Of a stretch of DNA of 64,000 nt, positions 7,634 through 52,038 are shown piece after piece. The stretch's first letter is position 1. Each line of letters begins with the position of its first letter. This stretch comes from Puccinia triticina (Eukaryota; Basidiomycota; Pucciniomycetes; Pucciniales; Pucciniaceae). Under the pieces are notes generated by a model. It ran no database searches, had not been told where the DNA came from, and was given only the letters and a program-made list of their open reading frames with translations. The translations under genes and the position numbers were made by a program. The DNA lies in assembly GCF_026914185.1 (NCBI RefSeq), contig NC_070575.1, positions 558,001-622,000 of the forward strand. Direction: 5' to 3'.

Positions 7634-7854
7634 CCTAACTCAGCAGAGAGAAGCTGATCTTCTCTCCTGGGTTAGGTGAGCACCTTCTTCTATTCCTCAT
7701 TATCAGATTGTATGCAGTTAGGAGAGAGAAGCTGATCTTCTCTCCTGGGTTAGAAATACAAAACATAAGTGGTTCCTAGAAATTCTGAGCCACCTTGGCC
7801 TTGTGCCAGCTTCCATGTCTGCCCAGTGAAGAGTCCTTTTGGAGGACTATTACA
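7634..7854 (+). ncRNA. Hairpin-spacer-hairpin structured element, locus A
   Basis: Unit X1 (7634-7675) is an imperfect palindrome with a CCTAAC..GTTAGG stem. A 42-nt spacer starting GTGAGC and ending TATGCAG (7676-7717) follows, then a direct repeat of X (about 7718-7753). Downstream a short stem AGTCCT/AGGACT (7832-7837 with 7843-7848) is followed by ATTACA. The same order recurs at 17931, 34998 and 51778. The spacer has intron-like ends but is short for a spliceosomal intron. Function is unknown; a transcribed RNA is inferred from compensatory changes in the terminal stem between loci. Confidence 0.55.
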
Positions 7855-7857
7855 AAA

Positions 7858-9212
7858 ATGTTGAAGAGCCGTCAGGTGGTGGTCGCGTAGGTCCTCTGGA
7901 TTTTCTGCTTGCAGCAAGGCCTTTGACAAGGCTTGGTAGATGTTCAAGCGGGTCCAATACATATGTAAAATTTTTCATCCCCGCAGGAATGTCTGTGGCA
8001 GTTGCCAGGGTGGTGTGATTCAGTTGATATGGCCGTGGCCCTGTTGTTGGTTGTTGTCAAGATGATAATGCGAGAGCATGGTGAGGCTGGGAGTCTATAA
8101 ATAGGGAACCTTGAGGAAGCCTTGTTCCCTCAGGCGACTCCTTGGTGCTGGTTTCCAGCCGGGGAGTTGTCTCACCCCCGTCTGCTGTTACACTTGTGCA
8201 GTTTGACGGGGGAATACTCGTTGGCCCTCCTTGTGCTTAACCGCTGGGGGTCATCCTCTCATTTGTTTTTTGACCCTGCTAGAAAGGGATGTACAGTGGG
8301 CCACGGTACATCAGCTTTCTGATGTTGGGTGGCAGTTTGCAGGCTTTTGGATTTGTTTATTGTCTTTTCATTGTGCTTTTGTGGTTTTTTATTTTGTGGG
8401 GGGAACCCTTGACTTTTTTTTTCTGATTTTTTGTGTGGGGGAAACCCTTGACTTCTGATTTTTTGTGTGGGGGAAACCCTTGACTTTTTTCCTGTTTTTT
8501 TGGTAATTTTTAGGGGGAACCCTTGATTTTTTTTCCATGATTCACTGGCTTTAATATACTTGGATCAATATGCCTGGGAAGCAGACTGGGTCAATTGATC
8601 CCTCACACCTGACCCACCCCCCCTCAGCAATTTTGTCAGCCTTGGTGATGCCAAGAGCTAGAACTCTTCTAGCGACACCCTGGGTGATGATGACAAAAAA
8701 GATCTATTGTTTAGAGGTTTGGATTTAATCAACGCTGAAACAAGTACAATTAGGGGGTATCAAATATGAGAAATCCACCATTACAAACCAGTCAATTAGA
8801 AATTTCCAAATCCACAATTCCTAATTGACGGGTTTTTGAAACCCACCAACCCAACCAAGGTGGATTTTGAAATAGCTAAATCACACTTTTTTCACTCAAA
8901 TCAGTCAATTCAAATTATCATAGTTTTTTAACTCACCCCACTTGAGCAACCTGAGCCCCAATTCAGTTCACCAAGCATTCAATCCAACTGATGCCCAAAT
9001 CAAATTCACTTCCTCAAACGTTCAAGCCAACTGAAACCCTGATCAAATACACTTCCTGGAACCTTTGGCCCAACTGACACCCGATCCAAATCACTTCCTG
9101 GAGCCTTCTACCCAACTGAACCCCCAATCAATTTTACTTCCTGGAGCCTTCTAACGAACTGATACCTCGATCAAATTCACTTCCTGGAACCTTTGAGAGC
9201 TCAAAAGCAATC
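7858..9212. other. Spacer with TATA-like site and short tandem repeat; Harbinger-type left end at 8753
   Basis: No gene seen. A TATAAATA core lies at about 8096. A purine/T-rich unit (GGGGGAAACCCTTGACTT plus a T-run) is repeated about four times between 8398 and 8540. At 8753 a GGGGGTATCAAATATGA end preceded by TTA matches a second copy at 16145; both lie upstream of Harbinger-type ORFs. Several CTTCCTGGA(A/G)CCTT repeats occur between 9000 and 9195. Confidence 0.45.
8753..8790 (+). repeat. Putative Harbinger terminal sequence, copy 1
   Basis: GGGGGTATCAAATATGA preceded by TTA, then a CCACCATTAC block. The same start occurs at 16145. PIF/Harbinger elements create 3-bp TTA/TAA duplications, which agrees. 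No matching right end was found. Confidence 0.4.
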
Positions 9213-10467
9213 ATGCCAAAAGTATCTCGAAGAAAAAAGATAGTTGAAGGGGCCAATGTTGCTGCCCTTGGCTTGATGCTTGATTTTGATTATGATTATG
9301 ACTCAGACCTTGAAGATTTTTACGCTTTTTCGATGCATCAGCTTCAGAGACGATACCTAGAAGACCGCAATTCCACCACTCGCTTAAATCCTCGCTATGA
9401 CGTGTGTGAACTTCAAGACCTATCAGCCTCAAGCTTTTTAAAACTGTTTCATATGACATTTCCATGTTTCCTCAACCTCCTCCAGCTTATTGAACAAAAC
9501 CCCATCTTCTACAACAACTCTCAGAACCACCTATTCAAATTGCTGTTGCTCTGTGCCATCTTGGATCAAATGGCAACGGGTCAGCTGTCTTAAGGCTGAA
9601 AAATCTTTTCCAAGTTGGCTTTGGAACAATTGACCTGTATACTAGAAGATTCATCAATGCTATTTACAAATTACGAACTTCTCTAATCTCATGGCCAACC
9701 AAATCTGAATGAATCAAATCATCACAGGTCATGCAAGAGGAAGGATTTCCTGGCTGTGTCGGATTTGTTGATGGAACGTTAATTCCCTTGAGTCAGAAGC
9801 CCCCAGTAGATGGGAATCACTACTTCAATCAAAAGAAGAGGTCATATTTTTGATACTATCTTCTATAAAGCAATCTTCTAACATGTTGACTGATTTTTTA
9901 TTTGGCCTGCCCCTCAGATACTCAATCTCAGTTACTCTCATATGTGATGTCAACAAGAATTTCATATTGTACCTGGCGGGATTCCCTGGCTCCTGTCATG
10001 ATGCTTATGTTTTTTCACACATGAAGGTTGCCCAGGAACCAGAACAATATTTTGATCAAAACCAATTCCTACTCGCAGACTCAGCCTACACCAATGATGG
10101 ATATGTTGTCCCTGCATACAAAGGGCCCAGAGAATTATCTGACCAGCGAAACGTCAATTTCAACTACCGCCTTGCCCAATCTCAAGTCAGAATTGAACAT
10201 GCCATTGGGATTCTCAAAGGTCAATTTGCTAGCCTACGTGAGATTTGAAGTCAATTATGCAGGCAGGAAGAGATGAAGGAAGCCATCAAATGGATTGTTA
10301 CATGCATCATTCTAAATAATCTGCTGGCAGACCTCAAAGATCAATGGAACAAGCTCTATGAAGATGAAATTCCTGAACCACCCCCTGAAATAGCACCCCA
10401 CACTGACAAAGCTTTGTATGATCTGAGACATATCTTGCGTCCCATCACACTGGCCCACTTTGAATAA
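9213..10467 (+). pseudogene. PIF/Harbinger (DDE_Tnp_4-type) transposase, decayed
   Basis: It starts at ATG 9213. The N-terminal part is helical; after a 1-nt frameshift near 9528 the family motif PPIQIAVALCHLGSNGNGSAV appears in the shifted frame, which fixes the position of the lesion. The catalytic triad is visible: D in GFVDGTLIPL (codon 9770-9772), D in FLLADSAYTND (10078-10080) and E in VRIEHAIGILKG (10195-10197). A probable intron lies between about 9839 and 9916 (..AAGAG|GT and CCCTCAG|ATACTC), which restores QKKRYSISV. Two in-frame TGA codons (after WPTKSE near 9710, and after LREI at 10246-10248) again fit CGA arginine codons. The C-terminus runs to 10467. It encodes a mobile-element recombinase. 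The right end of the element was not located. Confidence 0.8.
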
Positions 10468-10850
10468 GGCAAGTGGATCATTTGGGGGGGATGATTTTTG
10501 TTTGAATGAAATTGATTTCTATTCACCTAGATCCGGTCTTCCAAACCGTTTGAAGTGGTCTGGAACCATGTTCATGCCACGGTGTTTTTGGTTGCCTTTC
10601 AATTAATACAGTGTCACCAATATCATATTCATGTTTCACCTTTGATTTTTTTTCCTCCGTTCCCAGTCAAACTCTTCCACTTGAGTGGGTGGATTCATGT
10701 TTGCCCTTTCATCCTCTTCCCTTCGACCAAGCCAAGCTTCAACTCTTCATCAAAAGACTTCCCAAGTGCATAAAACCCCTCAACTCTCAATCTCATAGTC
10801 ACTGCCACGGAAACCCAGCCAACAAATACCGGTGGGTGATATCAAGGCCA
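10468..10850. other. Spacer without recognisable gene
   Basis: Follows the Harbinger frame. Only short frames are present and no motif was recognised. Confidence 0.35.
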
Positions 10851-11645
10851 GGGTTTTTTTAATCTTTGAGGCCTGTCTGACTGTCAAGGCCTCTCTCTGT
10901 TCTATCAGTTGGCAGACAACCTCAGAAGGCCTCTGACCTTGTCCTTGCACCTCAACTTGCCCTGGACCCTGCCCTTGTGCCACAATCCCCCACCAACAAA
11001 CCCAGGTGAACATTTTGGCTGTTCAACTGTCCTGGGCCTTGATCAATGGATCAAGGCCATGTTTTTTTTATCTCTGAGGCCTGGATGACTGTCCAGGCCT
11101 TGCAGTGTTCTGTCAGCTCGCGGGACCTCAACCTCACACCTCAAGTTGCCCCAGACCTGCTGTGGTGACGCAATCCCCCCCCCCCCCCACCGAACCCAGG
11201 TGAGTCTGGTGTTCCCTTCAATGGTCCTGGGCCTTGATTGATCAATTGAGGCCTTGTTTTTTTGATATTTGAGGCCTGGCTCACTGTCCAGGCCTCCCAT
11301 TGTTCTGACAGCTCGCGGATGACCTCGGAAGGCCTCCAAAAACGACCTCACACCTCCCCTCTCCCCGGACCCGCCATGCGATCGTGATCCCCCCCCCCCC
11401 CCCCCCGCTCCCCCCCCCAACAAACTAAGGTGAGTTGGTTTTTCCTTCAACGGTCCTGGGCCTCAATTGATCAATTGAGGCCAAGTTTTTTATTGATATT
11501 TGAGGCCTGGCTGACTGTCCAGGCCTCCCTTTGTTCTGTCAGCTCGCGGACAACCTCACAAGGCCTCTGAGCCCCGCCCTTGCCTCCAGGTGAGTCGGTC
11601 ATGATAATAAATAAAAGGCCTCAATTGAATGATTGAGGCCATTTT
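10851..11645. repeat. Tandem repeat of about 190-230 bp, four diverged units
   Basis: GAGGCCTG followed by CTGACTGTCCAGGCCT-like sequence recurs at about 10868, 11077, 11270 and 11502. Each is followed by a CAGCTCGCGGA-type block and a C-run (up to about 17 C at 11390), then a TTGATCAATTGAGG palindrome. No coding potential is evident; frames across it are by-products of the repeat. Confidence 0.7.
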
Positions 11646-12479
11646 CTTTTTCCGTTTAGGATTTGTGTTCACCTGGACTGTTATCACACGCATTCACCAA
11701 TCATCATGAGCTCACAGGCAAGTCCTTTCACCATCCAAATTATGAAAGCCAGCCCAAGCCTTGAGATGTAAAACACCACCTCCCCTAATTACCATTGACA
11801 TGAATATCCTCAGGACACTCCTCTGGTGTACATCAGAACCAATCCGTTTGAGATGCCCTTTGTACTTCCAGAGGCAAAGCCTCCTATAAGGATATTCATG
11901 GCCACTGGTATATGGGAAGGTGGAATACTCATCTGCAGATCCCATCCTCAGGAGGCCTCCTCTGGAGTGTGTAAGAACCATCCGTTTGAGATGCCCTGCA
12001 TCACCCCAAGAGTCAGGGCCTCCCTCATGGATGGGATCTGCAGATGGGCTATGGTTCAGGTTAATGGGGGAATTCCTATGTTTCTGACTTATGCATTCTC
12101 TTTTTCATCAGTTGAACAAGCGGCTTTCTCCAAACCGGATTTCACATGCAGCTTTGCAAACCCCAAGGCGCTTAATCCGGCTCAGCAAAGCATCAACCAA
12201 GAAGTACTTCAATCCACCCCCAAACACCCTTGAAACCCCTGTTTGCAAACCTGTCCTGGAGAGTCCCACAATCCTCTTGAGTGTGTCAGAAACATCCAGA
12301 ATTGATGCCCTAGATTACCTGATGTATCAGGGCTGCCTTTTTGCATTGGGCCACCAACTTCAAACCGTCATGCTCCATGTGCTCCACCTGCCTTACAATT
12401 CCTTTCCAAAAAGCAGCTACGACATTGAGAGTTCAAAGCAGCAAAACAACTTCAAGACAGGCAGAAGGCCAACCTCAAA
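11646..12479. other. Spacer, possible decayed ORF with internal repeat
   Basis: A 135-codon frame (11826-12233, +) contains two related blocks reading N-x-PFEMP, encoded by a duplicated CCGTTTGAGATGCCC at about 11847 and 11979. I do not recognise it and give it no function. Confidence 0.25.
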
Positions 12480-13458
12480 TACTCTGGCAAAGAACAAATT
12501 ACGGCACATTTTTGCAGGAAGGACCACAATGCGGGAATTCGGATGTTTTGCAAGAGCTTCATCGCCTACGCCGACAGCAGCCGCAAACACATTGTTTGTG
12601 TAGTCAAATCCAACCCGTTTGCCACCAAGGACAGCTCATTGAAAGCCCGATTTCAAAATCTCAGCCGCCATCGAATCCAGCAATCCAAATTCCAGAATCC
12701 CAACACCTCAAATGTTCCAGCATAAAATGGCAATCTGTTTAGTTTAGTTTGGCGGAAAGCGTACAAAGCAAAGACTACGATTGGAATAACGGGTATTGCG
12801 GAGAGGGTAGCTCGTGATCGTGATGGGTGGGAAGAACTTCAAACTGGTCTGCCTGAAGTCAATCAATTTATTGGCAAACAATCCAAGGCCCTTTCTAAAC
12901 CTCTGTTTGATGAAGTCAAAGAAAATTTTCAGCCATTGAATGCTCCAGGCTTGTCTCCAGATTTTGTCACGGATCCTGAAGCTTTTACTTGTCACTTATC
13001 CTATACCCTCAACAATTTTGCAAACAACTGCCACACCAATCAAGACTCATCCCCCTACACATTTGTCACATAGTTCCCAATCGACAAATCCACTGGTGAC
13101 TTAATCAAAGGAAAGTTAGATGGGCACGGTGGCAAATTTGTCTTCCCTAAAAATGGATTTGGTCTTTATTTTTCAGGTTTTCAAGGTGTTGTTGAGTGTG
13201 CATGGAAAGCTACACACTATGCTCATCTGACTCTCCCTTCCACTAGTCCCATTTCATCTTCACATACTCGACTTGGTTACTCCGTCCAGCTGCCGGCCAA
13301 AACCCAAAGAGCTTTGCAACTGATCAAAGATGAGTACTACAAAAAAAGTACAGACAAAAAAGACTGGGTTCCTTGTGATAAAGCTAAACTACTTCATGAT
13401 TCACTTGCATATCCTAAAAATGGAAGAGAAAAAATGTTGAAGATTCACTTGTCAAGCC
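12480..13458 (+). pseudogene. TET/JBP-type 2OG-Fe(II) dioxygenase of the rust-fungal expansion, decayed
   Basis: One frame carries HIVCVVKSNPFATKDSSL, NGNLFSLVWRKAYKAKTT, ITGIAERVARDRDGWEEL, the metal-binding neighbourhood NNCHTNQDSSPYTFVT, then FPIDKSTGDLI, GGKFVFPKNGFGLYF and TRLGYSVQL. This is the block order of the TET/JBP-like family that is expanded in basidiomycetes and linked there to KDZ transposons; it oxidises 5-methylcytosine in characterised relatives. It is broken by TAA at 12723-12725 and TAG at 13071-13073; the TAG replaces an expected Trp (TGG). The Asp of the H-x-D iron site appears as Asn (H-T-N). There is no intron, and a run of about 26 A follows at 13459. The N-terminal limit is uncertain. 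Confidence 0.65.
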
Positions 13459-13484
13459 AAAAAAAAAAAAAAAAAAAAAAAAAA
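13459..13484 (+). repeat. Poly(A) run after the TET/JBP pseudogene
   Basis: About 26 consecutive A lie directly after the last open codons of the intronless TET/JBP relic and 16 bp before the inverted-repeat arm. It is compatible with a retrocopy tail, but no target-site duplication was found. Confidence 0.5.
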
Positions 13485-13499
13485 TTGTAATTTAGAGCT

Positions 13500-15569
13500 C
13501 ACTAGAGGCCAAAGTGGCCACGCCGCTGCAAGATCTAAGCAGGTTTAAGCTCCCTGGTCCCTGAATGCCCCTTTCTTGCTGAATGGCCTCACCTCCCCCA
13601 GATAACCAGTCCAACTCATCAAAATATTTTAAATCTATTGATTTCAGGCAGGTTCATCAATCTTGGAGTTTGCTGCTTACAAAGTTAGGACTCCATAATT
13701 GATTATTCTCTCCAGTTCTTTTGGAGAATCAAGCATCCCATCCCCACTTGTAGTGTTTTTATACCAAAAAAAAAAAAAAGGGAAGAAGAATGAAAAAGAT
13801 ATCAGCTCTGTGATCCGTCAGGCGCAGGGAAAGTATGATGAAATGAGGCCACCTCAAGAACAAATAATTTTAAACATCTTCATTGGATTCTGACCAGTTC
13901 AAGGTTGGAGATACTTTGATCATGCTCTTCAAATCTGGATCATTCATAATGGTTTGAGGCTACATGTCTAACCAACTAATTGTTTTAGTCCCAAAAATGT
14001 TTACATTTATTCAAAATTTTGGCTCCTGTTCAGCAATATTCTTTTTTCTAATGTGTGGAGAGGTAGATAGTCAAGACAGACCACCAATTGCTCATCGAAC
14101 ATTATAAACATTGTGATCACCCGCGGCCAGAGGCAAGAAGTCCACACTCCAAACAGCCTAACAAAGAATTTCGCGAAGAGCAAAGAGCTAGTTAAACTGG
14201 GCTCACAATGGTGTAGTTGATGGTAGGAAAGTAGGGCTTGGAGCGAGAGGGATGTAGAATCATTGGTTGGGAGGGCGAGCGGGGTTGGATGGATCATGGA
14301 GGTCTGGGAGGGGGGCTGCAGAGCCAGTCGGTGATCTATCTGAGCGTGATCGCAAGGGTCGTGGTCGCTGGAGTTGAGTTGAAGGTGTGAGGGGCAAGCC
14401 GGAGTGGGCACAGGTCAGCAAGCCGAGCGCGGTCTGGGTCCGGCACAAGCACAAGCCATTTGGTCTCCTTGTCTCCAGCCTGGCGTTCTTGTCGTTCCTG
14501 AGAGAGCGGCGTTTGTGGACGTGATAGGAGGATCAGCCGCCTATGACGATGAGGAGACAAGGATGGTGATCCTCTCCTGCCAACTGTTGTCTCCGGTTTT
14601 TGTTCTCCTCCGCCGACGATTCAAGCCGCCGGGATGGAGGTTGTTAGGCTATAGGAGGAAGGAAGAGCAGAGAAGAAAGTCAGACAGCCCGGGCCCAGGA
14701 TACTCCGGTGCCGCTCAATCTCATACAGCCAGACCAGCCAGTGAATCATGACTAGATCAAGCTTGCGCACAAGAACGCCCGCGTATAGTTGCGTCTCTCC
14801 CATCCCCCCTTCATCTTGCATGCTGTAATTGCTGACAGGCGGGGCTGCAGCATGGCCTCCCGCAGCCGCGCCAAAGTCAAAGAGGCCAACCTGAAGATCG
14901 AGGCTGAACTCGCCTCAGCAGCTGCTAGTGGGGCCACGCCGTTGTTCGTCGATTTCCTCGAGTTTGACCTCGCCAAGATGGCCGCGGGGAAGAGGCCCTG
15001 GCGAATTGTTGAGTAAGGCGGTGCGGGGCGTCGTCAGGCTCGCAAGTGGCAGGGTTCGCCGGGGCGCCTAGGGCGTGGATGTGGCAATGGGGTGCCTCGT
15101 CCTATTGAGGCGTGGAGATTGTAGTGAAGGACGGCTGGATGGCGGACAGCCATGGCTGCGGATTGGAAATAGTGGGACGGTGGCCGGTGGCGACGGCGTG
15201 GCATGGAGTGATGGCCAGAGGGGTGTTACGACTGGTGCGGTGTATCATTGAGGCTGGATACGGGTATAAATAGAGCGGAAAGAAGAGGGGAGAAACCCCA
15301 GGGGCATCGGTTTCGTCCTAACCCCTCCCTGGAGCGCCCTAATCACTTGATTAGGCCCTCCTTGCAAAACAAAACCAACCGGCCCCTATTTGCTTGTTGC
15401 TGCGGCACGGCTGGAGGGTCGTCCATAGGACTCCAGAAGTCTTTGGGGACATTTCAACAGACTGCGGGTGTATTTAGTGTATGTAGGGGCTGAAAACAAA
15501 TTGTAATAGAAATATGCCAAAACTTAGATCTAAGTTTCCACAATTGTGTGGATTTAGGAAACTTGGATA
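13500..15569 (+). repeat. Left arm of 17-kb inverted-repeat structure (about 2.07 kb, starts CACTAGAGG)
   Basis: The arm is repeated in reverse at 28453-30524 with very few differences. The outer end reads CACTAGAGG; the inner end reads ACTTGGATA. The terminal CACTA suggests a CMC (CACTA) superfamily transposon end. The usual 2-3-bp target duplication is not visible (flanks GCT and TTC); the right flank has been altered by a MITE. A TATAAATA core lies at 15265-15272. Open frames in the arm (e.g. 14007-14411 minus, 14789-15016 plus) are mirrored in the other arm and have no recognised homology; I do not call them genes. Confidence 0.85.
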
Positions 15570-16473
15570 AATGTGGGTAATGTAAAATCCAGAATTTTGG
15601 CTAAATTCATACATTTTTGAAGTCCATTCATACACATTTCATGCCTATGCTCAGAGAATTTCCAAATTTTTCATACATTTTTTATCCCTAACATTGTTTC
15701 CCTTGGAAGGCAGAAAGCCTAATTTTTTGTGAAGCTAGTCACTTTTGATGGATTCAGCGGCACTGGGGCATACCCAAAAGAAAAATAAAACCCACAAAAA
15801 TGAAGAACTATGAAATTATTGTGTGATAGACTTAAGTAAAACTGAAACTTTGCTTTCTTCAAAAGAGGTTTGATACACAAAAATACCTCTTGCCACTGAT
15901 GTAAGAATGGCGCTTGAGACATTAGGGGGGTTCACAATTGAATTTGAAAAAACATTTGAGTTAAATTGAAGGCCCTTATGAGCAGGATTATATCAAAATT
16001 TGTCCTAACGTTTTGTAAATTTCAACCATGAACCCCCCTGTTGCAATGAGGAGAGGCTGCAATTTTTTGGGGATTGATACACAATTTCCCCCAAATTCAG
16101 TAATATTTGAGAGATTTGGAAGAACTAGAAATTTTATTCCATTAGGGGGTATCAAATATGACCAAACCCACCATTACCTAATCAACGGGTCTCACACAAT
16201 CCTCAATTGCAAAAGCAAAAAAAGGTTCTTTTTTGGCCAGGGCCTGTCAAATATAAGACAAAAAAATACCTGTTCTCAACCAAATACATCTGACTTTGCA
16301 GTACAAATCAAATCATCCCAGCCAAAATATCAACCACACACCAAACTCAACCACCCCGACTTCATTCGAATCTGTTTTTTCAAGGTAAGTCTTACCTCCA
16401 CGTTGATTCAAAGTATACTTATACCTTTGATCCCATTGATCTCTTTCTCATCCTTCTTCATCATACCAACAGA
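15570..16473. other. Interior left spacer of the inverted-repeat structure, with 5-prime UTR of the Myb-like gene
   Basis: Contains a second GGGGGTATCAAATATGA end at 16145 preceded by TTA, and a likely 5-prime-UTR intron (about 16384-16472, GTAAGT..CCAACAG) ending just before the ATG at 16474. Confidence 0.5.
16145..16180 (+). repeat. Putative Harbinger terminal sequence, copy 2
   Basis: Same GGGGGTATCAAATATGA start and CCACCATTAC block as at 8753, again preceded by TTA. It lies upstream of a Myb-like ORF, as expected for the two-gene organisation of PIF/Harbinger elements. Confidence 0.4.
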
Positions 16474-17551: not shown

Positions 17552-17878
17552 TTGAACGACTCTCCATCAAAGGAAATGGGATCAAAGAGGAAGCGCAAGG
17601 AACTTTATAAATCAACTTCAACAGCTTTCACCAAACCTTCTCAAAAGGACAATTCCGGTCAAAGTGAAGCAGAAAGCCCAACAAAGAAAACTGCAGCAAA
17701 GAAGAAGAAGTCCACATTGTTCTCAGCTGCCAAGGTTGCAGTACACGATACAACTGATGAAGACTCCAGTCAACCTAAGAAACCAGTTTCAAGAAAGAAG
17801 AAGCACAAATCTTCATCCACTGGTGTGAAGCGCGCCCTCAAGCCTCAAGTACGGGTTTCACATAACAATCCCCAATGA
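17552..17878 (+). CDS. Lysine/serine-rich segment, probably a later exon of the Myb-like gene
   Basis: An open frame of 108 codons with basic runs (KRKRK, KKKKS, RKKKHK). It ends about 50 bp before hairpin element B. It could be a separate exon of the 16474 gene or a remnant; there is no domain and no function is assigned. Confidence 0.3.
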   Translation: MNDSPSKEMGSKRKRKELYKSTSTAFTKPSQKDNSGQSEAESPTKKTAAKKKKSTLFSAAKVAVHDTTDEDSSQPKKPVSRKKKHKSSSTGVKRALKPQVRVSHNNPQ

Positions 17879-17930
17879 TCACCTCAGCAACCACCACCGC
17901 GACTATTTAGACTCGACTCTCCCGCGCCCT

Positions 17931-18197
17931 CCTAGCTCAGTAGAGAAAAGCTGACTTCTATCTACTGAGCTAGGTACGTTCCCTCCATCCCTTTCCTTTC
18001 TCTTCAAATCCTCAAACCATTGTATGTAGAGAGAAAAGCTGACTTCTATCTACTGAGCTAGATTTGCAATACATACTGTTGGGTTCTAGAAAATTCTCTC
18101 CAAGACTATAATTCTTGTCTAGCCCCAAATCCTCACTGGATGCTTTTAGGATCACCTTCACTGAACTGGAGTGAAGAGTCTAACAGAGACTCTTACA
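17931..18197 (+). ncRNA. Hairpin-spacer-hairpin structured element, locus B
   Basis: X1 (17931-17973) holds a 13-bp perfect stem CTAGCTCAGTAGA/TCTACTGAGCTAG. The spacer (17974-18029, 56 nt) starts GTACGT and ends TGTATGTAG. X2 (18030-18061) repeats the X1 core directly. The terminal stem AAGAGTC/GACTCTT (18174-18180 with 18188-18194) is followed by ACA. The chromovirus is inserted 21 bp downstream of that ACA. Confidence 0.6.
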
Positions 18198-18218
18198 ACT
18201 GGTTTGACAGCTGCTGAG

Positions 18219-19189: not shown

Positions 19190-19226
19190 TTCCCTACCAC
19201 CAAAAGGGTTGGATTTCTGTAAGAAA

Positions 19227-28306: not shown

Positions 28307-28452
28307 CTCGCAATTGTTGTTTTATGTGACTTGGATTTTGAATTAGTTGAATATTATCATCAACTTTGTCTTTATCATTTTAAAAAACAAAACACATCAA
28401 GATAAAAACTCAAAATGAACCTCATCAAAACAGGGTTATTTGCAGACAAATA

Positions 28453-30524
28453 TATCCAAGTTTCCTAAATCCACACAATTGTGGAAACTTAGATCTAAGT
28501 TTTGGTGTATTTCTATTACAATTTTTTTTCAGAGGCCCCTACATACACTAAATACACCCGCAGTCTGTTGAAATGTCCCCAAAGACTTCTGGAGTCCTAT
28601 GGACGACCCTCCAGCCGTGCCGCAGCAACAAGCAAATAGGGGCCGGTTGGTTTTGTTTTGCAAGGAGGGCCTAATCAAGTGATTAGGGCGCTCCAGGGAG
28701 GGGTTAGGACGAAACCGATGCCCCTGGGGTTTCTCCCCTCTTCTTTCCGCTCTATTTATACCCGTATCCAGCCTCAATGATACACCGCACCAGTCGTAAC
28801 ACCCCTCTGGCCATCACTCCATGCCACGCCGTCGCCACCGGCCACCGGCCCACTATTTCCAATCCGCAGCCATGGCTGTCCGCCATCCAGCCGTCCTTCA
28901 CTACAATCTCCACGCCTCAATAGGACGAGGCACCCCATTGCCACATCCACGCCCTAGGCGCCCCGGCGAACCCTGCCACTTGCGAGCCTGACGACGCCCC
29001 GCACCGCCTTACTCAACAATTCGCCAGGGCCTCTTCCCCGCGGCCATCTTGGCGAGGTCAAACTCGAGGAAATCGACGAACAACGGCGTGGCCCCACTAG
29101 CAGCTGCTGAGGCGAGTTCAGCCTCGATCTTCAGGTTGGCCTCTTTGACTTTGGCGCGGCTGCGGGAGGCCATGCTGCAGCCCCGCCTGTCAGCAATTAC
29201 AGCATGCAAGATGAAGGGGGGATGGGAGAGACGCAACTATACGCGGGCGTTCTTGTGCGCAAGCTTGATCTAGTCATGATTCACTGGCTGGTCTGGCTGT
29301 ATGAGATTGAGCGGCACCGGAGTATCCTGGGCCCGGGCTGTCTGACTTTCTTCTCTGCTCTTCCTTCCTCCTATAGCCTAACAACCTCCATCCCGGCGGC
29401 TTGAATCGTCGGCGGAGGAGAACAAAAACCGGAGACAACAGTTGGCAGGAGAGGATCACCATCCTTGTCTCCTCATCGTCATAGGCGGCTGATCCTCCTA
29501 TCACGTCCACAAACGCCGCTCTCTCAGGAACGACAAGAACGCCAGGCTGGAGACAAGGAGACCAAATGGCTTGTGCTTGTGCCGGACCCAGACCGCGCTC
29601 GGCTTGCTGACCTGTGCCCACTCCGGCTTGCCCCTCACACCTTCAACTCAACTCCAGCGACCACGACCCTTGCGATCACGCTCAGATAGATCACCGACTG
29701 GCTCTGCAGCCCCCCTCCCAGACCTCCATGATCCATCCAACCCCGCTCGCCCTCCCAACCAATGATTCTACATCCCTCTCGCTCCAAGCCCTACTTTCCT
29801 ACCATCAACTACACCATTGTGAGCCCAGTTTAACTAGCTCTTTGCTCTTCGCGAAATTCTTTGTTAGGCTGTTTGGAGTGTGGACTTCTTGCCTCTGGCC
29901 GCGGGTGATCACAATGTTTATAATGTTCAATGAGCAATTGGTGGTCTGTCTTGACTATCTACCTCTCCACACATTAGAAAAAAGAATATTGCTGAACAGG
30001 AGCCAAAATTTTGAATAAATGTAAACATTTTTGGGACTAAAACAATTAGTTGGTTAGACATGTAGCCTCAAACCATTATGAATGATCCAGATTTGAAGAG
30101 CATGATCAAAGTATCTCCAACCTTGAACTGGTCAGAATCCAATGAAGATGTTTAAAATTATTTGTTCTTGAGGTGGCCTCATTTCATCATACTTTCCCTG
30201 CGCCTGACGGATCACAGAGCTGATATCTTTTTCATTCTTCTTCCCTTTTTTTTTTTTTGGTATAAAAACACTACAAGTGGGGATGGGATGCTTGATTCTC
30301 CAAAAGAACTGGAGAGAATAATCAATTATGGAGTCCTAACTTTGTAAGCAGCAAACTCCAAGATTGATGAACCTGCCTGAAATCAATAGATTTAAAATAT
30401 TTTGATGAGTTGGACTGGTTATCTGGGGGAGGTGAGGCCATTCAGCAAGAAAGGGGCATTCAGGGACCAGGGAGCTTAAACCTGCTTAGACCTTGCAGCG
30501 GCGTAGCCGCTTTGTCCTCTAGTG
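28453..30524 (-). repeat. Right arm of 17-kb inverted-repeat structure (ends CCTCTAGTG)
   Basis: Reverse complement of 13500-15569 with only scattered substitutions (for example one C/T near 29930). The inner edge is TATCCAAGT and the outer edge CTAGTG. A MITE sits directly on the outer edge. Confidence 0.85.
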
Positions 30525-30700
30525 TTCTTCAAAGTTGAAGTTCATGCATGTATAAATGCATAAATCATAAATTCATAAAACTTTGTTTGCAGGGGATCTC
30601 ACCAATCTTCTTAAGTAATCGTTGGCTTTCCCAGCCAAAGAATTTTTATGAATTTATGATTTACACATTTATGCATGCATGAATTCCAACTTTGAAAACC
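30525..30700. mobile_element. MITE, family 1 copy 1 (TTCAAAGTTG ends)
   Basis: Arms TTCAAAGTTG..TTCATGCATG and CATGCATGAATTCCAACTTTGAA pair over about 60 bp. Related MITEs lie at 35581 and 59388. The left end runs into the TAGTG of the inverted-repeat arm. Confidence 0.6.
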
Positions 30701-33350: not shown

Positions 33351-33357
33351 CTTAAAT

Positions 33358-33901: not shown

Positions 33902-33905
<4 letters not shown>
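33358..33905. other. Spacer before the tRNA gene
   Basis: A short open frame (about 33373-33618) has protein-like composition but no recognised motif and is cut on its left by the MITE. Coding is not supported. Confidence 0.3.
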
Positions 33906-33941
<36 letters not shown>

Positions 33942-33958
33942 GCACCTTCTGGCTCCGC

Positions 33959-33995
<37 letters not shown>
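33906..33995 (+). tRNA. tRNA-Arg (anticodon UCU) with 18-nt intron
   Basis: All arms are readable: acceptor GCTCCCC with GGGGAGT, anticodon stem TTGGA/TCCAA around loop CTTCTA-A, and T arm GCGGG-TTCGAGC-CCCGC. The anticodon TCT is at 33938-33940. The intron (33942-33959) lies in the canonical position one base 3-prime of the anticodon. The discriminator is G (33995). It decodes AGA. The intragenic B box is GGTTCGAGCC. Confidence 0.95.
33942..33959 (+). other. tRNA-Arg intron
   Basis: 18 nt between positions 37 and 38 of the tRNA; removed by the tRNA splicing endonuclease in known systems. Confidence 0.9.
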
Positions 33996-33996
<1 letters not shown>

Positions 33997-34011
33997 CTTT
34001 GAGCAATGCTA

Positions 34012-34016: not shown

Positions 34017-34069
34017 GTTGCACCCCGTGGACCATCTGGACTACCGACTGCGGCACCCAACGACCCAAC

Positions 34070-34842: not shown

Positions 34843-34997
34843 GTCAACTTATACCGAAGATCAACCTTTGGAAGGCAGTCAATCTCAAGTACTACAATTG
34901 TCTGGAAGGAACAAGATGTAAAGCCCGCCCACACGCGCACTTCACAAACATGTCACAAGACTCAAATCCAGTCTACTTAGTTCCTCCATTCTTCTTT

Positions 34998-35246
34998 CCT
35001 AGCTCAGCAGAGACTTGACCCCGACCTCTCTCTCTCCTGAGCTAGGTATGTTCCTCCTTTCTCTTTCTCCCTCCTTTTCCTTATCTCCTCCTTTCCCCAG
35101 TTGTACGTAGCAGAGACTTGACCCTGACCTCTCTCTCTCCTGAGCTAGATGCAATAAAGACCCCATGTTGGCATCAGAAACCCTCAAAACTGTTGTCTCT
35201 CCTGAGTGCCAGCGCCTAGCCCAGTGAAGAGCTTCCAGCTCTTACA
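34998..35246 (+). ncRNA. Hairpin-spacer-hairpin structured element, locus C
   Basis: X1 (34998-35045) has a CTAGCTCAG..CTGAGCTAG stem. The spacer (35046-35110, 65 nt) starts GTATGT and ends TTGTACGTAG. X2 (35111-35148) repeats the core. The terminal stem AAGAGCT/AGCTCTT (35227-35233 with 35237-35243) is followed by ACA. It lies 155 bp downstream of the DUF3245-like stop and may be part of its 3-prime UTR. Confidence 0.6.
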
Positions 35247-35249
35247 CAA

Positions 35250-37383: not shown

Positions 37384-37386
37384 CTG

Positions 37387-38787
37387 CACCAGGAAAAAAA
37401 ATAGTCACTTGATGGCAAGTGACATGATGCAGCTTTGGTTTCTGCTCCAGAGCTACTCCAGCGCTGCTCCAATTCTGCTCCACCAGCACTTGCAGAGCTT
37501 GCAGGACTGCACCAGAGCACTCAATGTGGCACAGTCAGCTGATCCTAATTTTTTCCCAGGAACAGCTGATGCTCATCATAAGCTAAGCAGTAGGCATTGA
37601 CTGAGCCTGGGCCAAAGCTGAGAATTGGCTGATCCTGGGCCACAGCTGAGCATTGGATATTCCAAGCTTGAAACAAATCCAAGTGTCAGCTGGACCAAGA
37701 ATATTCCAAATCTGAGCATCAGCTTAGCCAACAATGGTCCAAAGCTGAGCATCATCTTGGAAAAGGCTTGTGCAGAGCTTAGGATCAGCTGGGACAATAC
37801 TGTTCCAAAGATTTACACCAGCTGGCCCAAAAATATTGCAAAGCTGAGCATCAGCTGAGCCAATGCTGGTACAAAGCTGAGCATTGGCTGAGCCAAGGCT
37901 GCTCTAAAGCTGAGTATCAGATGTTTTGAGACAATTAAAAAGATTAATATCACCTGAGCCAAGGCTGTTCCACAGCTGAGCATCAGCTGAGCCAAGGCTG
38001 GTCCACAGCTGAGCATCAGCTGAGCCAAGGCTGGTCCACAGCTGAGCATCAGCTGAGCCAAGGCTGGTCCACAGCTGAGCATCAGCTGAGCCAAGGCTGG
38101 TCCACAGCTGAGCATCAGCTGAGCCAAGGCTGGTCCACAGCTGAGCATCAGCTGAGCCAAGGCTGGTCCACAGCTGAGCATTGGCTTAGCCAAGGTTGGT
38201 CCACAGCTCAGCATCAGCTGAGCCAAGGCTGGTCCACAGCTGAGCATCAGCTGAGCCAAGGCTGGTCCACAGCTGAGCATTGGCTTAGCCAAGGTTGGTC
38301 CACAGCTCAGCATCAGCTGAGCCAAGGCTGGTCCACAGATGAGCATAAGCTGTTACAGGAGTGGTCAGACTCAGAATCTGAGCATTGGCTGGGGCAAGAT
38401 TTATCCAAAGCTGAAAATCAGCTGAGCCAATACTGGTCCAAAGCTGAGCATTGGGTGGGCCAATGATAGTCCTAGTATGAGTCTAAGATGAGCCATGAGT
38501 GGAATAAAGCTGAAACGCAGCTGGGCCAGGACTGGTTCTGATCTGGGCAACAAAGCTGAGCATAAGCTTGAAGCTAAAGCTGAGTATCAGCTGACCAGAA
38601 ATGGGGATCAGTGGTGCCCAGTGAAAACTGAGGATCTCCTGTGGAAATTCTGAAAGTGGTTAGATGGTGGGTAGATGGTGGTTAGATGATGGGTAGATGG
38701 TGGGTAGATGGTGGGTAGATGGTGGGTAGCCTGCTGGAACTGGCATGATGTCACTTGTCATCAAGGGACTATTTTTTTTTCCTGGTG
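37387..38787. mobile_element. CACCAGG-ended minisatellite transposon, copy 1 (TSD CTG)
   Basis: Ends CACCAGGAAAAAAAATAG and CTATTTTTTTTTCCTGGTG with a second nested pair (CACTTGATGGCAAGTGACATGATG and CATGATGTCACTTG). CTG occurs on both sides. The interior is about eleven copies of a 33-bp unit (AGCTGAGCATCAGCTGAGCC) and diverged relatives. It is non-autonomous. The 3-bp duplication and CACCA start suggest the CMC/CACTA superfamily. Confidence 0.8.
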
Positions 38788-42872: not shown

Positions 42873-42935
42873 GAAGCAACTCGCCAGCGCGCTCCTTCGA
42901 GGAGAGTCTCAAGGAACCACTCTCTGGAGCGGGTT

Positions 42936-42975
42936 TGTCAGTTGCTGTGCCGTCTGGACTAGCAGCCCACTGACA
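42936..42975 (+). repeat. 40-nt hairpin repeat, copy 2
   Basis: TGTCAGTTGC..ACTAGCAGCC..CTGACA. Same length and order as 31888-31927. It lies just beyond the hAT relic, so it may mark that element's end. Confidence 0.5.
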
Positions 42976-47400: not shown

Positions 47401-47503
47401 CTCCGTGTTTCTTCTCCTGCCTGCTTCTACCCATCCCCAACATCTTCGCCCAGTCATCCTGCCCAGTCCTTATCTACCTCTCGTCTGACATATCCTTCCG
47501 TGG
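44469..47503. other. Long intergenic region upstream of the bZIP gene
   Basis: Unresolved. Small frames at 44723-44914 and 45940-46272 (minus, WTVELASRVKESWGEE) have protein-like composition but no recognised domain. CT-rich sequence at 47160-47480 suggests the promoter/5-prime UTR of the bZIP gene. Confidence 0.35.
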
Positions 47504-50487
47504 ATGATTACTGACCAACTTCCTATCGGTCCTTTTGCCTTCGCTGCCATCCAATCAGAAACCCGCTCCATGATGTCCATCCGCGGTGGACCACCCTTGT
47601 CCAATACCCGGACCAGTCTGCCCCAGATCCAGTCCAAGTTCGACCTCGAGCCCAATCCGTTTGAACAGTCCTTCAAGGACAACCCTACTGACCCTGATCA
47701 AAACCCTCATCAGCCCAATACCAACTCACCTTCGCTAGACCATCTTCTCAACGGATCCCGATCCCGCAAATCACGCTCAACCTCCCCACCCCACTTTTCG
47801 TCCGAAAACAGGCTCAGCCCCCCCGTCATCCGCCACACTCCAGGTGGCAGTACCGTCAAAGTATCTCTTCCAGGTATCAACTCCATTGCCTCGCCCGCCA
47901 TCCTTGTCCATCATACCGGCACGAGCACTCCCAAGTCTCTCAGCCCACCAAGTCTCTCCGCCTCCCAACCCGCTCAATCCTCCCTAGCTTCGATGCCGCC
48001 CTACAGCTGGAACTTTGGCGGATTGGGCGACTCCTTGAGGACTGGTCCGCTTTCGCCTGCGCTGCTCAATGGCCCTGCTCATGTACGAGCTGATCACTCG
48101 GTCTCTCACACCGGCCTTGCCCCTTTGATGGATATCGATAATAATAATAATAATAATAATAACAACAGCAATGGTAATGGAACCATCACCCCTGGTACTC
48201 AGGCATTGATTGCCATACTATCCGGTAACGACCAAAACACAAATGATATCCGAAATGCGGTTGGTCAACCGTCCTTGTCCTCCATCGAAGTTGGCCCTAC
48301 CAATCCTACAGATCCTAGTTCTCTCACTCAGCTCAACCACCCCATTAACCTAGATCCATCCAATCGATCCACCTCAACCATCAAGTCTTCGTCTAATCGC
48401 CAGTCGCTTGGCTCCGCTAGCCACAGGTCGGCAGGTCCCACATTTAGTTCGGTCGATTCAACTTCTAAAGCATCATCATCGACCCTGCAAGATGATTGCC
48501 AATCATCGACGTCGATCAACCATTCGCCGTCTTCATCCTCCCCCAAAACGCAGGATCAAAACCAAATTGTCCAAGTACCAGCTTGTTCCAGATTGGCCCC
48601 CGTTTCAGTGGCTCCAGTCAATGACTCAAGCACCTCGCCTCCCTCAAGTTCTGCTCATCCCCAAAGAGAGGCACCTTCAAGTTCTTGCATTCAATCGTTC
48701 ATGGCTACATCCGTCGGCCGTGCGGGTGTGACAGGCCTCCATTCTGTATCTTCTCTCGGTTTGACGCAATCCTCGAATTCTTCCATCGGTTCATATCCCT
48801 GCCCTGTCGCAAATTCAAGGTCACCCTTCCCTCAGCCTCCGATGCCTCTCACTATACCCCCAGCTCCACCCCTTCAATCAGCAGAAATCGTCACACCCCT
48901 ATCCCCCAGCTCGACCTCCAGAAACCCAATGAATTCACTTCCGTCAGGATCGGTTGACCGCATCAATGACCAGTACAACACGAATCCGCTTTATCTACTG
49001 ACCGTTGCTCATGAAGCTTCCTCACGAATGTCGCAACTGTCCAATCCTCGAGACTCTCACCATCACGACTCTATGGATGACGCCACGGCTACCGCTGCCG
49101 CCGCACTCACAGGCCTCGGAAGCAGCGGTGGCAGTAGGTACTCCTCACCTGGTCCTGCTATCAATCAGAACGGAACCATCAATTCACATCTGATTAACAA
49201 CATTCATCATACTCAATCGGCAATCTTGAAGCATGCCGAGGTCGGATCATCCGCCACAAGTCCCAGGTTATCCTCCCAACGACTCAGCACATTGTCCGAC
49301 TCATCTTCGCTCCCTCCCGGTGTGATCCTTTGTCCAGATAATGCGGTCAATCTACTATCGGCTCATCATGACGGCCCTTTTGCAACCGAAGCAGCAGGCG
49401 TGCACAATCTTAATGGCTTACTACCCCAAGCAGGCTCCTCAGGAGCTGGTTCTGCCTCACACATGCAATTCCAACCAAGCTATTCAAACCACAGCCTAGG
49501 TCCGATTGTTACCATGAATATCCCTAACAGTAATCCCAACCAGCAATCCTTTTCGCCTCTCGGAATGTCAGCTAGCAAGAAGAAGGGCAAGAAGCGAAAA
49601 GAAGCTGCTTTCGAAGATTCTCAGAAGGGCGAGCTGCAATCATCGCCCTCAATAGGGGACTCGTCCGTCCCACGCGGTTCCAGTAAAGTTCCTCGAACCG
49701 GACGACCGAACCAGAAGGCCAAAAAATCCAAGAAGGCCAAGATGGATGACATGAGTGGGGATGATTCCGACTCCCGGGACGGCTACTGGGGAACGGAGGA
49801 AGATAAAACATACATGAAGCAGCAAGGCGCAGAGGATGGTGAATTCGGGGGCTACTCTGGTCATGCACAAATGCCCTCGAACTATGACCCCGACCATCCA
49901 CCTGCAGCAGGCCAATCCTCCGCAAGTGGAAAGCCCGAGACTGAGGAGGAGAAGCGGAAAAACTTTTTGGAACGGAACCGACAGGGTTAGTTGAACATCT
50001 TGCATGATTATACGTTATAGTCAATTGACGTGTTTTTATTTATTTATTTATAGCCGCTTTGAAATGTCGACAAAGGAAGAAAGCGTGGCTTGCCAACCTA
50101 CAGACCAAGGTAGAATACCTGAGCACGGAGAACGAGAGTCTCCAACTGACGATCAACCAGCTGCGAGAAGAGATCGACTCGTTCCGGAGCATCCTCGTTT
50201 CGCACAAGGATTGTCCGATCACCGTTGGCGGTGGCCGAGGGGCGTCGACGACGATTGGCGAGCTCGTCGGCCGTGAGCCTGGCCTGGTCGCTGCCAGTGC
50301 CGCTGCCATCCTTGCTCAGCAACAGCAACAGCAAAACGGCCCCCGTGCTGCCCTCCGTCTTCCCCAAGCCCAGAACTCTATTCTTCCCTCAACCCATGTC
50401 GCTGGCACTCTTGCTCCTTCTAATGCCCCTATGGCCCAAACCCACCACACCTCATGTGGAACTATCGCATCTTCCTATGGATACTAA
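47504..50487 (+). CDS. Atf1/ATF2-type bZIP transcription factor (two exons)
   Basis: Exon 1 is 47504-49985, the intron 49986-50053 (GTTAGT..TTTATAG, 68 nt) and exon 2 50054-50487, for 971 residues. FDLEPNPFEQSF at residues 46-57 is the fungal Atf1 N-terminal signature; a TPGTQALIAIL block lies near 228. A polyasparagine stretch (AAT repeats, 48136-48180) and long Ser/Pro-rich low-complexity regions fill the middle. An acidic/basic run precedes the bZIP, which is split by the intron: NFLERNRQ | AALKCRQRKKAWL, then a zipper with Leu heptads (VEYLSTENESLQL). Such factors bind CRE sites and act downstream of the Hog1/Sty1 stress kinase; many S/T-P sites fit. A polyglutamine run is near the C-terminus. 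The start could lie further upstream. Confidence 0.9.
49986..50053 (+). other. Intron inside the bZIP basic region
   Basis: 68 nt, GTTAGT..ATAG. It joins CAG-G to CC, restoring NRQAALKCRQ. Confidence 0.85.
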
Positions 50488-51253
50488 CCGTCTCCCCCTG
50501 CCTTCCCCCGACTATCATTCAACTTTTTTTTTTGGATTATTGTTTTCATTTCGTTCTTTCTTTCTTCTCTCAGCTGCATTCTGTGTGTTCCATTTTCTCC
50601 CTCCTTCCACCTCCCATCCCGTTTCTACTTTTAGACACCGAAAACCTTTGCTGTCCCGCATCACAAACGCTTTTGTCGTGTTAACTGAGCTTTACTGCTG
50701 CCTGTTTACTCTTGAAAGCAAACATTCATTTCTTATGCTTGTTCTTTCTTGGGGACGATTGGAAGACGAAGGGGGGGGGGGCAAGAGAGGGACGTGAGGG
50801 ATATTTCTTGTTCTCTTTCTATTCATTTTACTAGATTTTTTCCAATTTCTAGGTTCTTTTTGTCTTATTCATCATCTTTTTTTTCCTTGCCTTTTTTTCT
50901 CCCCTCTCATCATCATCATCATCATCATCATCCTTGTTCTTTTTGGTTGCATGACACGATATATGTATTCAAGTTATGTTCCTCATGATGTTTTTGCCTT
51001 CCTCGAGAGAAGATCTTACTTCGTACAGCCACATGAATTTTATATTTAATTGCGACATCCAATGCATCGATATGTGTATCGGGAATTGAATTCTTTCCTG
51101 CCTGCCTGAAGAGGCCCCATCTTGTACCAGACTAGAATCTATACATGTATAAATATATGTACACCCCAAGGGAAAACAAAATCTCACCTCTAATGCAGCA
51201 GTTTTTTGTCGTGCTTCCTTGTCGTGCTTACCGGTTGGACTCTGATGATCAAC
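50488..51253. other. 3-prime flank of the bZIP gene
   Basis: T-rich sequence, a CAT microsatellite (about 50907-50930) and a G-run at about 50770. No gene. Confidence 0.5.
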
Positions 51254-51401
51254 TGGAGGACTTCCCGCCGATCTGGAAACCCAGATTTTCCCAGATTTCG
51301 CAGGGAAATCTAGGCAGATCTAGGATTTGGGATGATCGAGCCCAGATTTCCCCGCAAAATCTAGAAAAATCTGAGTTCCCAGATTGACGGGAAGTCCTCC
51401 A
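51254..51401. mobile_element. MITE, family 2 (TGGAGGACTTCCCG ends)
   Basis: TGGAGGACTTCCCG/CGGGAAGTCCTCCA ends; the arms pair over about 60 bp (CAGATTT blocks). A shorter relative lies at 58480. Confidence 0.75.
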
Positions 51402-51777
51402 CTGTCTGCTGTAAGTTTAGGCTGCGTGGCGCGCGGGGACTTCTCTGGCGGTGCCGTCTTGTCCCGCTCGCGCACTTCATCGCGCGCTTGCGCAGCTAGC
51501 CGTCAACACTGCTCCTTTGCACTAAGCCCACTTCCCGCTACGTTTCAGGAGCAATCAGTATAGCCTCTACAGAGGGACAAGTGGAGAAGGAAAAAAACAG
51601 AGTTCTGCTGCCTACTGCTTCGCAAGGTTGGGCGTAACTCCCTCCTTCGGATTTCATCGAGGGACTTCGCTAAGTGTTGAGTTGTAGTGTTGTTGTTTCA
51701 TGTTTCTCTCATGTTTTCCTGCTTCAAACCTTTCTCTCACCTTTCACAGTCGTGACATCCTGTATGTAGTTATCTGA

Positions 51778-52038
51778 GGCAGCAGAGACGTGGAAGCCCT
51801 TTTCCTCATCCTTCCACGAACTCACTCATCTCTGTGTTCTGCTGCCCCAGGTTAGTGTTTCTTTCTTTTTGTCTTTTTCTTCTTTTCCTTGTTCTTTCAT
51901 TTCTATGATGCAATGAATCATCCTTCCACGAACTCACTCATCTCTGTGTTCTGCTGCCCCAGGATGATTCATCTCATCACTAAGTTAGAGAGAGGACGAT
52001 GCTGAAAGAGCCATAGAGCAAGTTCTCCAAGAACTACA
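51778..52038 (+). ncRNA. Hairpin-spacer-hairpin structured element, locus D
   Basis: X1 (51778-51851) folds as GGCAGCAGA..TCTGCTGCC with an inner CGTGGAAG/CTTCCACG. The spacer starts GTTAGTG (51852-51919, 68 nt) but has no AG at its end. X2 (51920-51962) exactly repeats the 43-nt 3-prime half of X1. The terminal stem AGTTCT/AGAACT (52021-52026 with 52030-52035) is followed by ACA. It is the most diverged copy; TGTATGTAG precedes X1 here rather than X2. Confidence 0.5.

What the first reader, a model, noticed from the sequence alone, without database searches (positions are those of the whole stretch)
7634..52038. Four-copy family of hairpin / GT-started spacer / same-hairpin elements with a covarying 3-prime stem followed by ACA
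Loci A (7634-7854), B (17931-18197), C (34998-35246) and D (51778-52038) share one plan but little sequence: a palindromic unit X, a 42-68-nt spacer that starts like a 5-prime splice site (GTGAGC, GTACGT, GTATGT, GTTAGT) and in A-C ends with T(G/A)YGYAG-like acceptors, then a direct copy of X. About 80-120 nt later a short stem (AGTCCT/AGGACT, AAGAGTC/GACTCTT, AAGAGCT/AGCTCTT, AGTTCT/AGAACT) is followed by ACA. Stem bases differ between loci but always pair, so RNA structure seems to be conserved rather than sequence. Loci B and C follow K-rich coding ends. I know no described rust RNA family of this form. Function (3-prime UTR structure, small RNA precursor, ACA-box-like RNA) is open.
Basis: partly seen in the sequence, partly recalled or inferred. 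Interest (0 to 1): 0.9.

Follow-up and report, generated by a model that had tools for sequence, protein, structure and literature searches.

The report
Transposon repeats that regrow their introns
The four odd hairpin pairs are end-repeats of jumping genes in a rust-like fungus; each carries an intron that appears to be spliced out of the transposon's RNA and put back when the transposon copies itself, although copying through spliced RNA should delete it.

Summary
Loci A-D are solo LTRs of LTR retrotransposons (TG..CA ends, 5-bp target duplications), not a small-RNA family. A-C are related LTRs (Ty3/gypsy pol shown for A and B); D is an unrelated Ty1/copia LTR. X-spacer-X is real in all four. 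The A-C '3-prime stem + ACA' is the LTR's terminal hairpin; D's lies outside its LTR (chance). In 25 lineages the repeat ends at AG|GT (copy 1) and AG|U5 (copy 2), so the intron reads as spacer plus second X. In 17 LTR pairs no X1/X2 difference is inherited, although lineages diverge widely: X2 looks re-made from X1 each cycle. Family E, nested inside A, is the strongest evidence: its first X holds two GT-AG introns, and its second X is the same three exons joined (0 mismatches in the window copy; both introns missing in 13 of 13 copies examined). Best model: the 5' leader is spliced to X|U5, its strong-stop cDNA lands on X2 at the RNA's 3' end, and the unspliced 3' LTR restores the intron. 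No RNA data were available. Ten literature searches showed no description. Start site, poly(A) site, splicing order and the upstream arm's role are inferred.

The parts
6647..6713 (+). LTR A, first part (solo LTR, gypsy-type; target duplication AAAAT at 6642-6646 and 7855-7859)
   Evidence: blastn to A-type LTR positions 1-67
7608..7854 (+). LTR A, second part, ending ..TTACA (5 bp CTTAA are the duplication made by insertion of E)
7632..7643 (+). A: upstream arm CACCTAACTCAG, pairs with end of X1 across the donor
7642..7675 (+). A: X1 (inferred cap A of TCA to donor)
7676..7753 (+). A: inferred intron (78 nt, GTGAGC..TTAG) = spacer + X2 (X2 7720-7753)
6714..7607 (+). LTR E (solo, Ty1/copia family) inserted into LTR A; target duplication CTTAA
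6869..6907 (+). E: exon 0 of X1
6908..7019 (+). E: intron 0 (112 nt, GTAAGC..AATCAG), absent from X2
7020..7092 (+). E: exon a of X1
7093..7194 (+). E: intron 1 (102 nt, GTATGC..CATTTAG), absent from X2
7195..7266 (+). E: exon b of X1, followed by GTTCGC
7267..7323 (+). E: spacer, ending AATAAAAA directly before X2
7324..7507 (+). E: X2 = exon 0, a and b joined without introns
7508..7579 (+). E: extra copy of exon b after X2
17824..18197 (+). LTR B (solo, gypsy-type; target duplication ACTGG)
17939..17973 (+). B: X1 (arm 17931-17940 just upstream)
17974..18061 (+). B: inferred intron (88 nt, GTACGT..CTAG) = spacer + X2 (X2 18027-18061)
34917..35246 (+). LTR C (solo; target duplication CAAGA)
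35006..35045 (+). C: X1 (arm 34998-35007)
35046..35148 (+). C: inferred intron (103 nt, GTATGT..CTAG) = spacer + X2 (X2 35109-35148); AATAAA follows in U5
51675..51979 (+). LTR D (solo, Ty1/copia family; target duplication CTAAG)
51773..51796 (+). D: upstream arm pairing with end of X1
51808..51850 (+). D: X1
51851..51962 (+). D: inferred intron (112 nt, GTTAGT..CCCCAG) = spacer + X2 (X2 51920-51962)

Best explanation
A-E are LTRs of several LTR-retrotransposon families whose R region carries introns that are regenerated at transposition. Transcription starts at a TCA at the start of X1. In the 5' leader the intron (spacer + X2; in family E also two introns inside X1) is spliced, so the RNA begins X|U5, and minus-strand strong-stop cDNA carries X|U5. 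It is transferred to the 3' end of the RNA, where the poly(A) site lies inside or just after X2, so that X2 is the natural landing site. Extension copies the unspliced spacer, X1 and U3 from the 3' LTR. The new LTR is U3-X1-spacer-X2-U5: the intron is back and X2 is a fresh spliced copy of X1. Shown by sequence: LTR identity, repeat boundaries at splice signals, no inherited X1/X2 difference in 17 pairs, and a second copy without the two introns in family E. Inferred: start site, poly(A) site, splicing order, strand transfer to X2, and a role of the upstream arm in hiding X1 and its donor in the 3' LTR.
For: LTR pairs with target duplications and polypurine tracts; pol domains. X1/X2 identity 92-100% at each of positions -30 to -1 in 25 lineages, 24% and 48% at the next two; +5 G in 24 of 25 donors, CTRAY branch-like motif in X2 in 14 of 25 against 3.1 in shuffles. 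X1-X2 differences 7 of 1,020 (last 30 nt of X), none inherited, in 17 pairs, against 60 of 5,373 between the LTRs. Family E: both introns missing from X2 in 13 of 13 copies, GT-AG resolved for both in 10 of 13, 0 mismatches in 186 aligned positions in the window copy; exons agree at 93-100% within a copy, mostly 64-86% between lineages. TATA-like motif 30-36 nt before the TCA in 15 of 20 gypsy-type lineages, 1.5 in shuffles. Triple arrays and X|U5 LTRs.
Against: No RNA data. Three inherited X1/X2 differences in two of three E pairs, allowed by the model but not predicted in number. Predicted donor accessibility differs little between 5' and 3' context (0.36 against 0.31, 16 of 25), so donor masking is weakly supported. 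GT at +1/+2 was used to place the junction. In gypsy-type LTRs the first 3 nt of X after the TCA agree in only 7-13 of 20. L092, L093 and L094 have one intron each whose edges the script did not resolve to GT-AG. Intronless LTRs are rare: 2 seen among the fetched loci, 0 by pattern.
Confidence: 0.85

Rival explanations
1. X1 and X2 are an old tandem duplication inside R, kept alike by DNA-level slippage, unequal crossing-over or gene conversion; splicing plays no part.
For: Triple arrays and intron-less LTRs exist and can arise by recombination between repeats.
Against: Family E: X2 lacks both introns of X1, 13 of 13 copies, which DNA recombination does not produce. No inherited difference in 17 pairs needs renewal at about every insertion. 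The repeat stops at AG|GT in two unrelated LTR groups.
Confidence: 0.08
2. The second copy was made once from spliced RNA in an ancestor and has since been held by selection on both copies; the packaged RNA is normally unspliced.
For: Packaging of unspliced RNA is the rule in retroviruses (recalled).
Against: X differs widely between lineages while X1 and X2 change together within each copy, and no X1/X2 difference is inherited in 17 pairs.
Confidence: 0.06
3. The loci are structured small RNAs or H/ACA-like RNAs.
For: Hairpins, and a stem followed by ACA in A-C.
Against: ACA is the LTR end with target duplications directly behind it; no Rfam match at the loci; the D stem lies outside its LTR.
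Confidence: 0.01

Closest known systems
Ty3/gypsy and Ty1/copia LTR retrotransposons
   Same: LTR pairs, 5-bp target duplications, polypurine tract, pol domains.
   Different: R holds a duplicated first exon around an intron; gypsy-type families have a T-tract instead of a TGG primer site.
LTR retrotransposons with internal introns (Ogre, EVADE; PMC12786077, passages read)
   Same: A functional intron in an LTR element.
   Different: As described there, the introns serve to make subgenomic RNAs; here the intron lies in the LTR and seems to be restored after splicing. That their introns are internal is recalled.
Retroviruses with a splice donor in R (HTLV/BLV, foamy viruses; recalled, no call)
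   Same: Splice donor within R.
   Different: Acceptor lies far downstream and the genomic RNA is unspliced; no second copy of the first exon in the LTR.
Intron-marked Ty reporter elements (PMC12786077, passages read)
   Same: RNA is spliced, then reverse transcribed.
   Different: There the intron is lost, which proves the RNA intermediate; here a second X lets it come back.
Rust Copia and Helenus elements (PMC10886601, passages read)
   Same: Rust LTR elements with anticodon-loop tRNA primer sites, which the D-type primer site resembles.
   Different: The passages read do not mention introns or duplicated exons in LTRs.

Membership tests
LTR retrotransposon (LTR) | Two direct repeats flanking an internal region | tested here: met
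   19 pairs among A-D types and E pairs; the window loci themselves are solo LTRs
LTR retrotransposon (LTR) | 5-bp target duplications and TG..CA ends | tested here: met
   A-C type: 11 of 13 pairs exact, 1 with one mismatch, 1 none; D: 6 of 6; E: 3 of 3 pairs whose ends were both shown; read by eye
LTR retrotransposon (LTR) | pol domains | tested here: met
   A and B: RVT_1, Integrase_H2C2; D: rve, SH3_retrovirus; E: rve, RVT_2. The one C-type frame tested had no Pfam match
LTR retrotransposon (LTR) | tRNA primer site next to the 5' LTR | tested here: inconclusive
   E: TGG.. in 3 of 3; D resembles anticodon half of tRNA-iMet (tRNA recalled); A-C: T-tract in 13 of 13
Spliceosomal intron in R | Donor, branch and acceptor signals | tested here: met
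   +5 G 24 of 25; CTRAY 14 of 25 against 3.1 in shuffles; AG at end of X2
Spliceosomal intron in R | Observed removal from RNA | not testable with these tools
   No RNA data. For E introns 0 and 1 the spliced copy in the DNA stands in.
H/ACA RNA | Two hairpins with box H and ACA at the RNA 3' end; family match | tested here: not met
   No Rfam match except a tRNA in the window; ACA is the LTR end; a box H was looked for by eye only

The most novel reading that the evidence does not exclude
In these rust-type elements splicing is a required step of replication: essentially every successful transposition uses a spliced 5' leader as strong-stop template and an unspliced 3' LTR as acceptor, so introns are stably inherited through spliced RNA. 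The arrangement occurs in at least three LTR groups (A-C, D, E) in both superfamilies.
Probability: 0.6. Interest if true: 0.92.

Novelty: new variant of a known kind. Interest (0 to 1): 0.86.

Why it matters
Loss of introns on passage through RNA is the textbook signature of retrotransposition. These LTRs suggest how an element can be spliced, reverse transcribed and still keep its introns, by holding a second copy of its first exon as the landing site for first-strand transfer. That would give a genomic record of first-strand transfer, mark the likely start and poly(A) sites of each family from DNA alone, and make it testable whether splicing is tied to replication competence. It also warns that structure or repeat screens can misread such LTRs as RNA genes.

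Tried and rejected
Rejected: small structured RNA or H/ACA family; acceptor at the end of the spacer (it would give X1-X2-U5 leaders and spacer-less arrays, which I did not see in the sequences listed; the motif there is TAYRTA); tandem duplication without splicing as the whole story (family E).

Weak or nowhere: the donor-masking idea (0.36 against 0.31 unpaired, 16 of 25); self-priming of A-C types by pairing of the T-tract with the start of the RNA (looked at by eye, fits A and B in part, not C). Pattern searches for LTRs lacking the intron (types A, D, C, up to 3 mismatches) gave 0 hits, while the same search on the natural junction gave 37 (A) and 14 (D); no such control was run for C. 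That zero is not absolute: two LTRs with X joined to U5 were already among the fetched loci (L029, L062), too diverged or of another subtype for the patterns.

Rows dropped before counts. Of 83 LTR sequences, 12 failed: L013, L052, L077 and L037 had a damaged or shifted junction; L035, L061 and L066 are arrays (L061 and L066 overlap); L006, L029, L032, L062 and L064 gave no usable repeat. One of the 71 kept (L042) lacks the AG at the X2 end. L001, L009 and L039 duplicate window loci and were left out. In one search two of 19 pairs (L033/L037, L077/L078) were skipped. Of 14 E loci (13 fetched plus the window) L089 has no X2 and was left out; one search used 10 of them. The window A row was cut at 7545-7854, before I found that its first 63 nt belong to E.

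Literature searches. Only passages were seen of PMC10886601, PMC5542766, PMC12786077, PMC3601003, PMC12810828 and PMC1266399; none of those passages describes an intron inside an LTR or its regeneration (the phrase hit in PMC5542766 is an intron in the leader of a vector called LTR1). PMC4256276 was seen as a listing only. Subscription papers and Repbase were not searched.
Full report
What was checked. All four intervals were read directly. Each holds a unit X, a spacer that begins GT and a near-identical direct copy of X. Rfam finds only a tRNA in the window at gathering threshold. The window is G000:C18:558001-622000 of a 122.8-Mb assembly in 18 contigs.

The loci are LTRs. Whole-genome searches list 46, 41, 41 and 41 rows for B, C, A and D (40 candidates scored each, so lower bounds). 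Many come as same-strand pairs at fixed spacing, for instance 3,781 bp at three A-type sites and 3,782 bp at a fourth. Comparing the members of a pair gives repeats of about 305-375 bp that start TGT and end ..CA. Of 13 A/B/C-type pairs, 11 have exact 5-bp target duplications, one has one mismatch and one has none; 6 of 6 D-type pairs have exact ones; all read by eye. A purine-rich tract precedes the 3' LTRs shown. Reading frames match RVT_1 and Integrase_H2C2 (A, B: Ty3/gypsy) and rve with SH3_retrovirus (D: Ty1/copia). The one C-type frame tested gave no Pfam match, so C is linked to the gypsy-type only through LTR similarity (0.34-0.47 between types) and the shared T-tract after the 5' LTR. 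In the window A, B, C and D are solo LTRs with target duplications AAAAT, ACTGG, CAAGA and CTAAG. The D stem lies some 40-60 bases beyond the D LTR. In gypsy-type LTRs the terminal stem is real: mean 7.5 bp against 3.6 in shuffles over 13 cluster representatives.

The repeat is bounded by splice signals. In 25 lineages (20 gypsy-type, 5 copia-type; 17 clusters at 85% identity plus 8 partial loci), X1 and X2 agree at 92-100% at each position from -30 to -1 and fall to 24% and 48% at the next two. The first copy is followed by GT, the second by U5. GT was used to place the junction; the fall and the +5 G (24 of 25) were not. X2 holds a branch-like CTRAY in 14 of 25 (3.1 in shuffles). The left edge of the repeat lies at a TCA in the copia-type and within 3 nt of one in the gypsy-type, with a TATA-like motif 30-36 nt upstream in 15 of 20 gypsy-type lineages (1.5 in shuffles). 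So X reads as 'cap to donor' and the intron as 'spacer + X2', 75-126 nt.

X2 is re-made. In 17 LTR pairs (two more were skipped) X1 and X2 differ at 7 of 1,020 positions (last 30 nt of X, both LTRs), while 5' and 3' LTRs differ at 60 of 5,373. None of the seven is shared by both LTRs of an element, so over that stretch X1 and X2 were identical at insertion in all 17, although X differs widely between lineages. Copying X1 into X2 in about every cycle follows if the strong-stop cDNA is made from a leader in which X1 is already joined to U5.

Family E is the strongest evidence. Locus A is interrupted by a second solo LTR at 6714-7607 (target duplication CTTAA), of a Ty1/copia family (RVT_2 at 1.4e-39) with a TGG primer site in 3 of 3. 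Its first X contains exon 0, a 112-nt GT-AG intron, exon a, a 102-nt GT-AG intron and exon b. Its second X is exon 0, a and b joined, with no mismatch in 186 aligned positions (184 exonic plus the following GT). All 13 E copies examined lack both introns in the second X; the script resolved GT-AG for both introns in 10 of 13 and for one of two in L092, L093 and L094. Within a copy the exons agree at 93-100%; between lineages mostly at 64-86% (10 copies). Here the DNA itself carries an unspliced and a spliced form of the same leader. Three inherited differences were found in two of three E pairs; the model allows these, since X1 would come from the parent's 3' LTR and X2 from its 5' LTR.

Mechanism (inferred as a whole). 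Start at the TCA; splice X1 to U5; make strong-stop cDNA X|U5; transfer it to the 3' end of the RNA; copy spacer, X1 and U3 from the unspliced 3' LTR. Poly(A)-type signals sit where this needs them. In E, AATAAA precedes X2 closely in 7 of 10 (my reading). In D-type, AATGAA precedes X2 in 4 of 5 (my reading). In gypsy-type LTRs TAYRTA precedes X2 in 13 of 20 (1.3 in shuffles) and an AATAAA-like hexamer follows X2 in 16 of 20 (my count; no shuffle control). If the RNA ends inside X2, as suggested for D and E, the acceptor is missing from the 3' copy and that intron cannot be spliced there. In A-D an upstream arm pairs with the end of X1 across the donor: cognate -18.2, non-cognate -16.4, shuffled -9.7 kcal/mol for 20 gypsy-type (0 of 5,000 permutations as low); -31.5, -27.5 and -14.5 for 5 copia-type (permutation 0.049). 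Relatedness of lineages inflates the first figure. The arm lies before the inferred start, so it would be present only in the 3' copy of the RNA. Masking of X1 or its donor there is attractive but weakly supported: predicted donor accessibility is 0.36 in the 5' and 0.31 in the 3' context, lower in the 3' context in 16 of 25.

By-products fit. LTRs with X-spacer-X-spacer-X (L035, L061; a D-type site with two junctions 123 bp apart) are expected when an unspliced strong-stop lands on X2. LTRs with X joined to U5 (L029, L062) are expected when a spliced one lands on X1, and one lacking spacer and X2 (L089) may be similar. DNA recombination would also give these, so they are not proof. By pattern such X|U5 LTRs were not found (0 hits; natural-junction controls 37 and 14).

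Known and new. LTR retrotransposons with functional introns are known (Ogre, EVADE; PMC12786077, passages), rust LTR elements with anticodon-loop primer sites are known (PMC10886601, passages), and splice donors in R occur in some retroviruses (recalled). In ten literature searches (listed under Tried and rejected) and the passages read I found no LTR that keeps an intron by carrying a second copy of its first exon. I therefore call this a new variant of a known kind, with RNA confirmation outstanding.

Noticed in passing
A/B/C-type elements, e.g. L046, L002, L019, just after the 5' LTR: CTTTTTTTTTCT follows the 5' LTR directly in 13 of 13 elements looked at where a TGG tRNA primer site is expected; priming by an oligo(A) end, perhaps the RNA's own tail, is an untested idea.
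   Followed up: partly
D-type elements, L069-L080: The primer site GGTTATGAG.. resembles the anticodon half of tRNA-iMet (tRNA recalled), as reported for rust elements in PMC10886601 (passages).
   Followed up: partly
window 7436-7579 and E-type LTRs: Exon b occurs twice in a row at the end of X2 in most E copies but once in L094; may reflect use of different acceptors.
   Followed up: partly
D-type LTRs, window 51909-51975: X2 is flanked by short inverted arms (GAATCATC / GATGATTC) that differ but still pair in L078 (listing, by eye).
   Followed up: no
window 13482-15575 and 28447-30542: About 2.1-kb inverted arms, 100% complementary over 1,724 nt, with LTR B and a large gypsy-like element between them.
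   Followed up: no
window 37572-38498 and 62119 onwards: 33-bp tandem arrays with shared flanks about 24.5 kb apart.
   Followed up: no
window 33905-33997: tRNA-Glu (ttc) gene 1 kb upstream of LTR C; not checked for being part of a tRNA-bearing LTR element.
   Followed up: no
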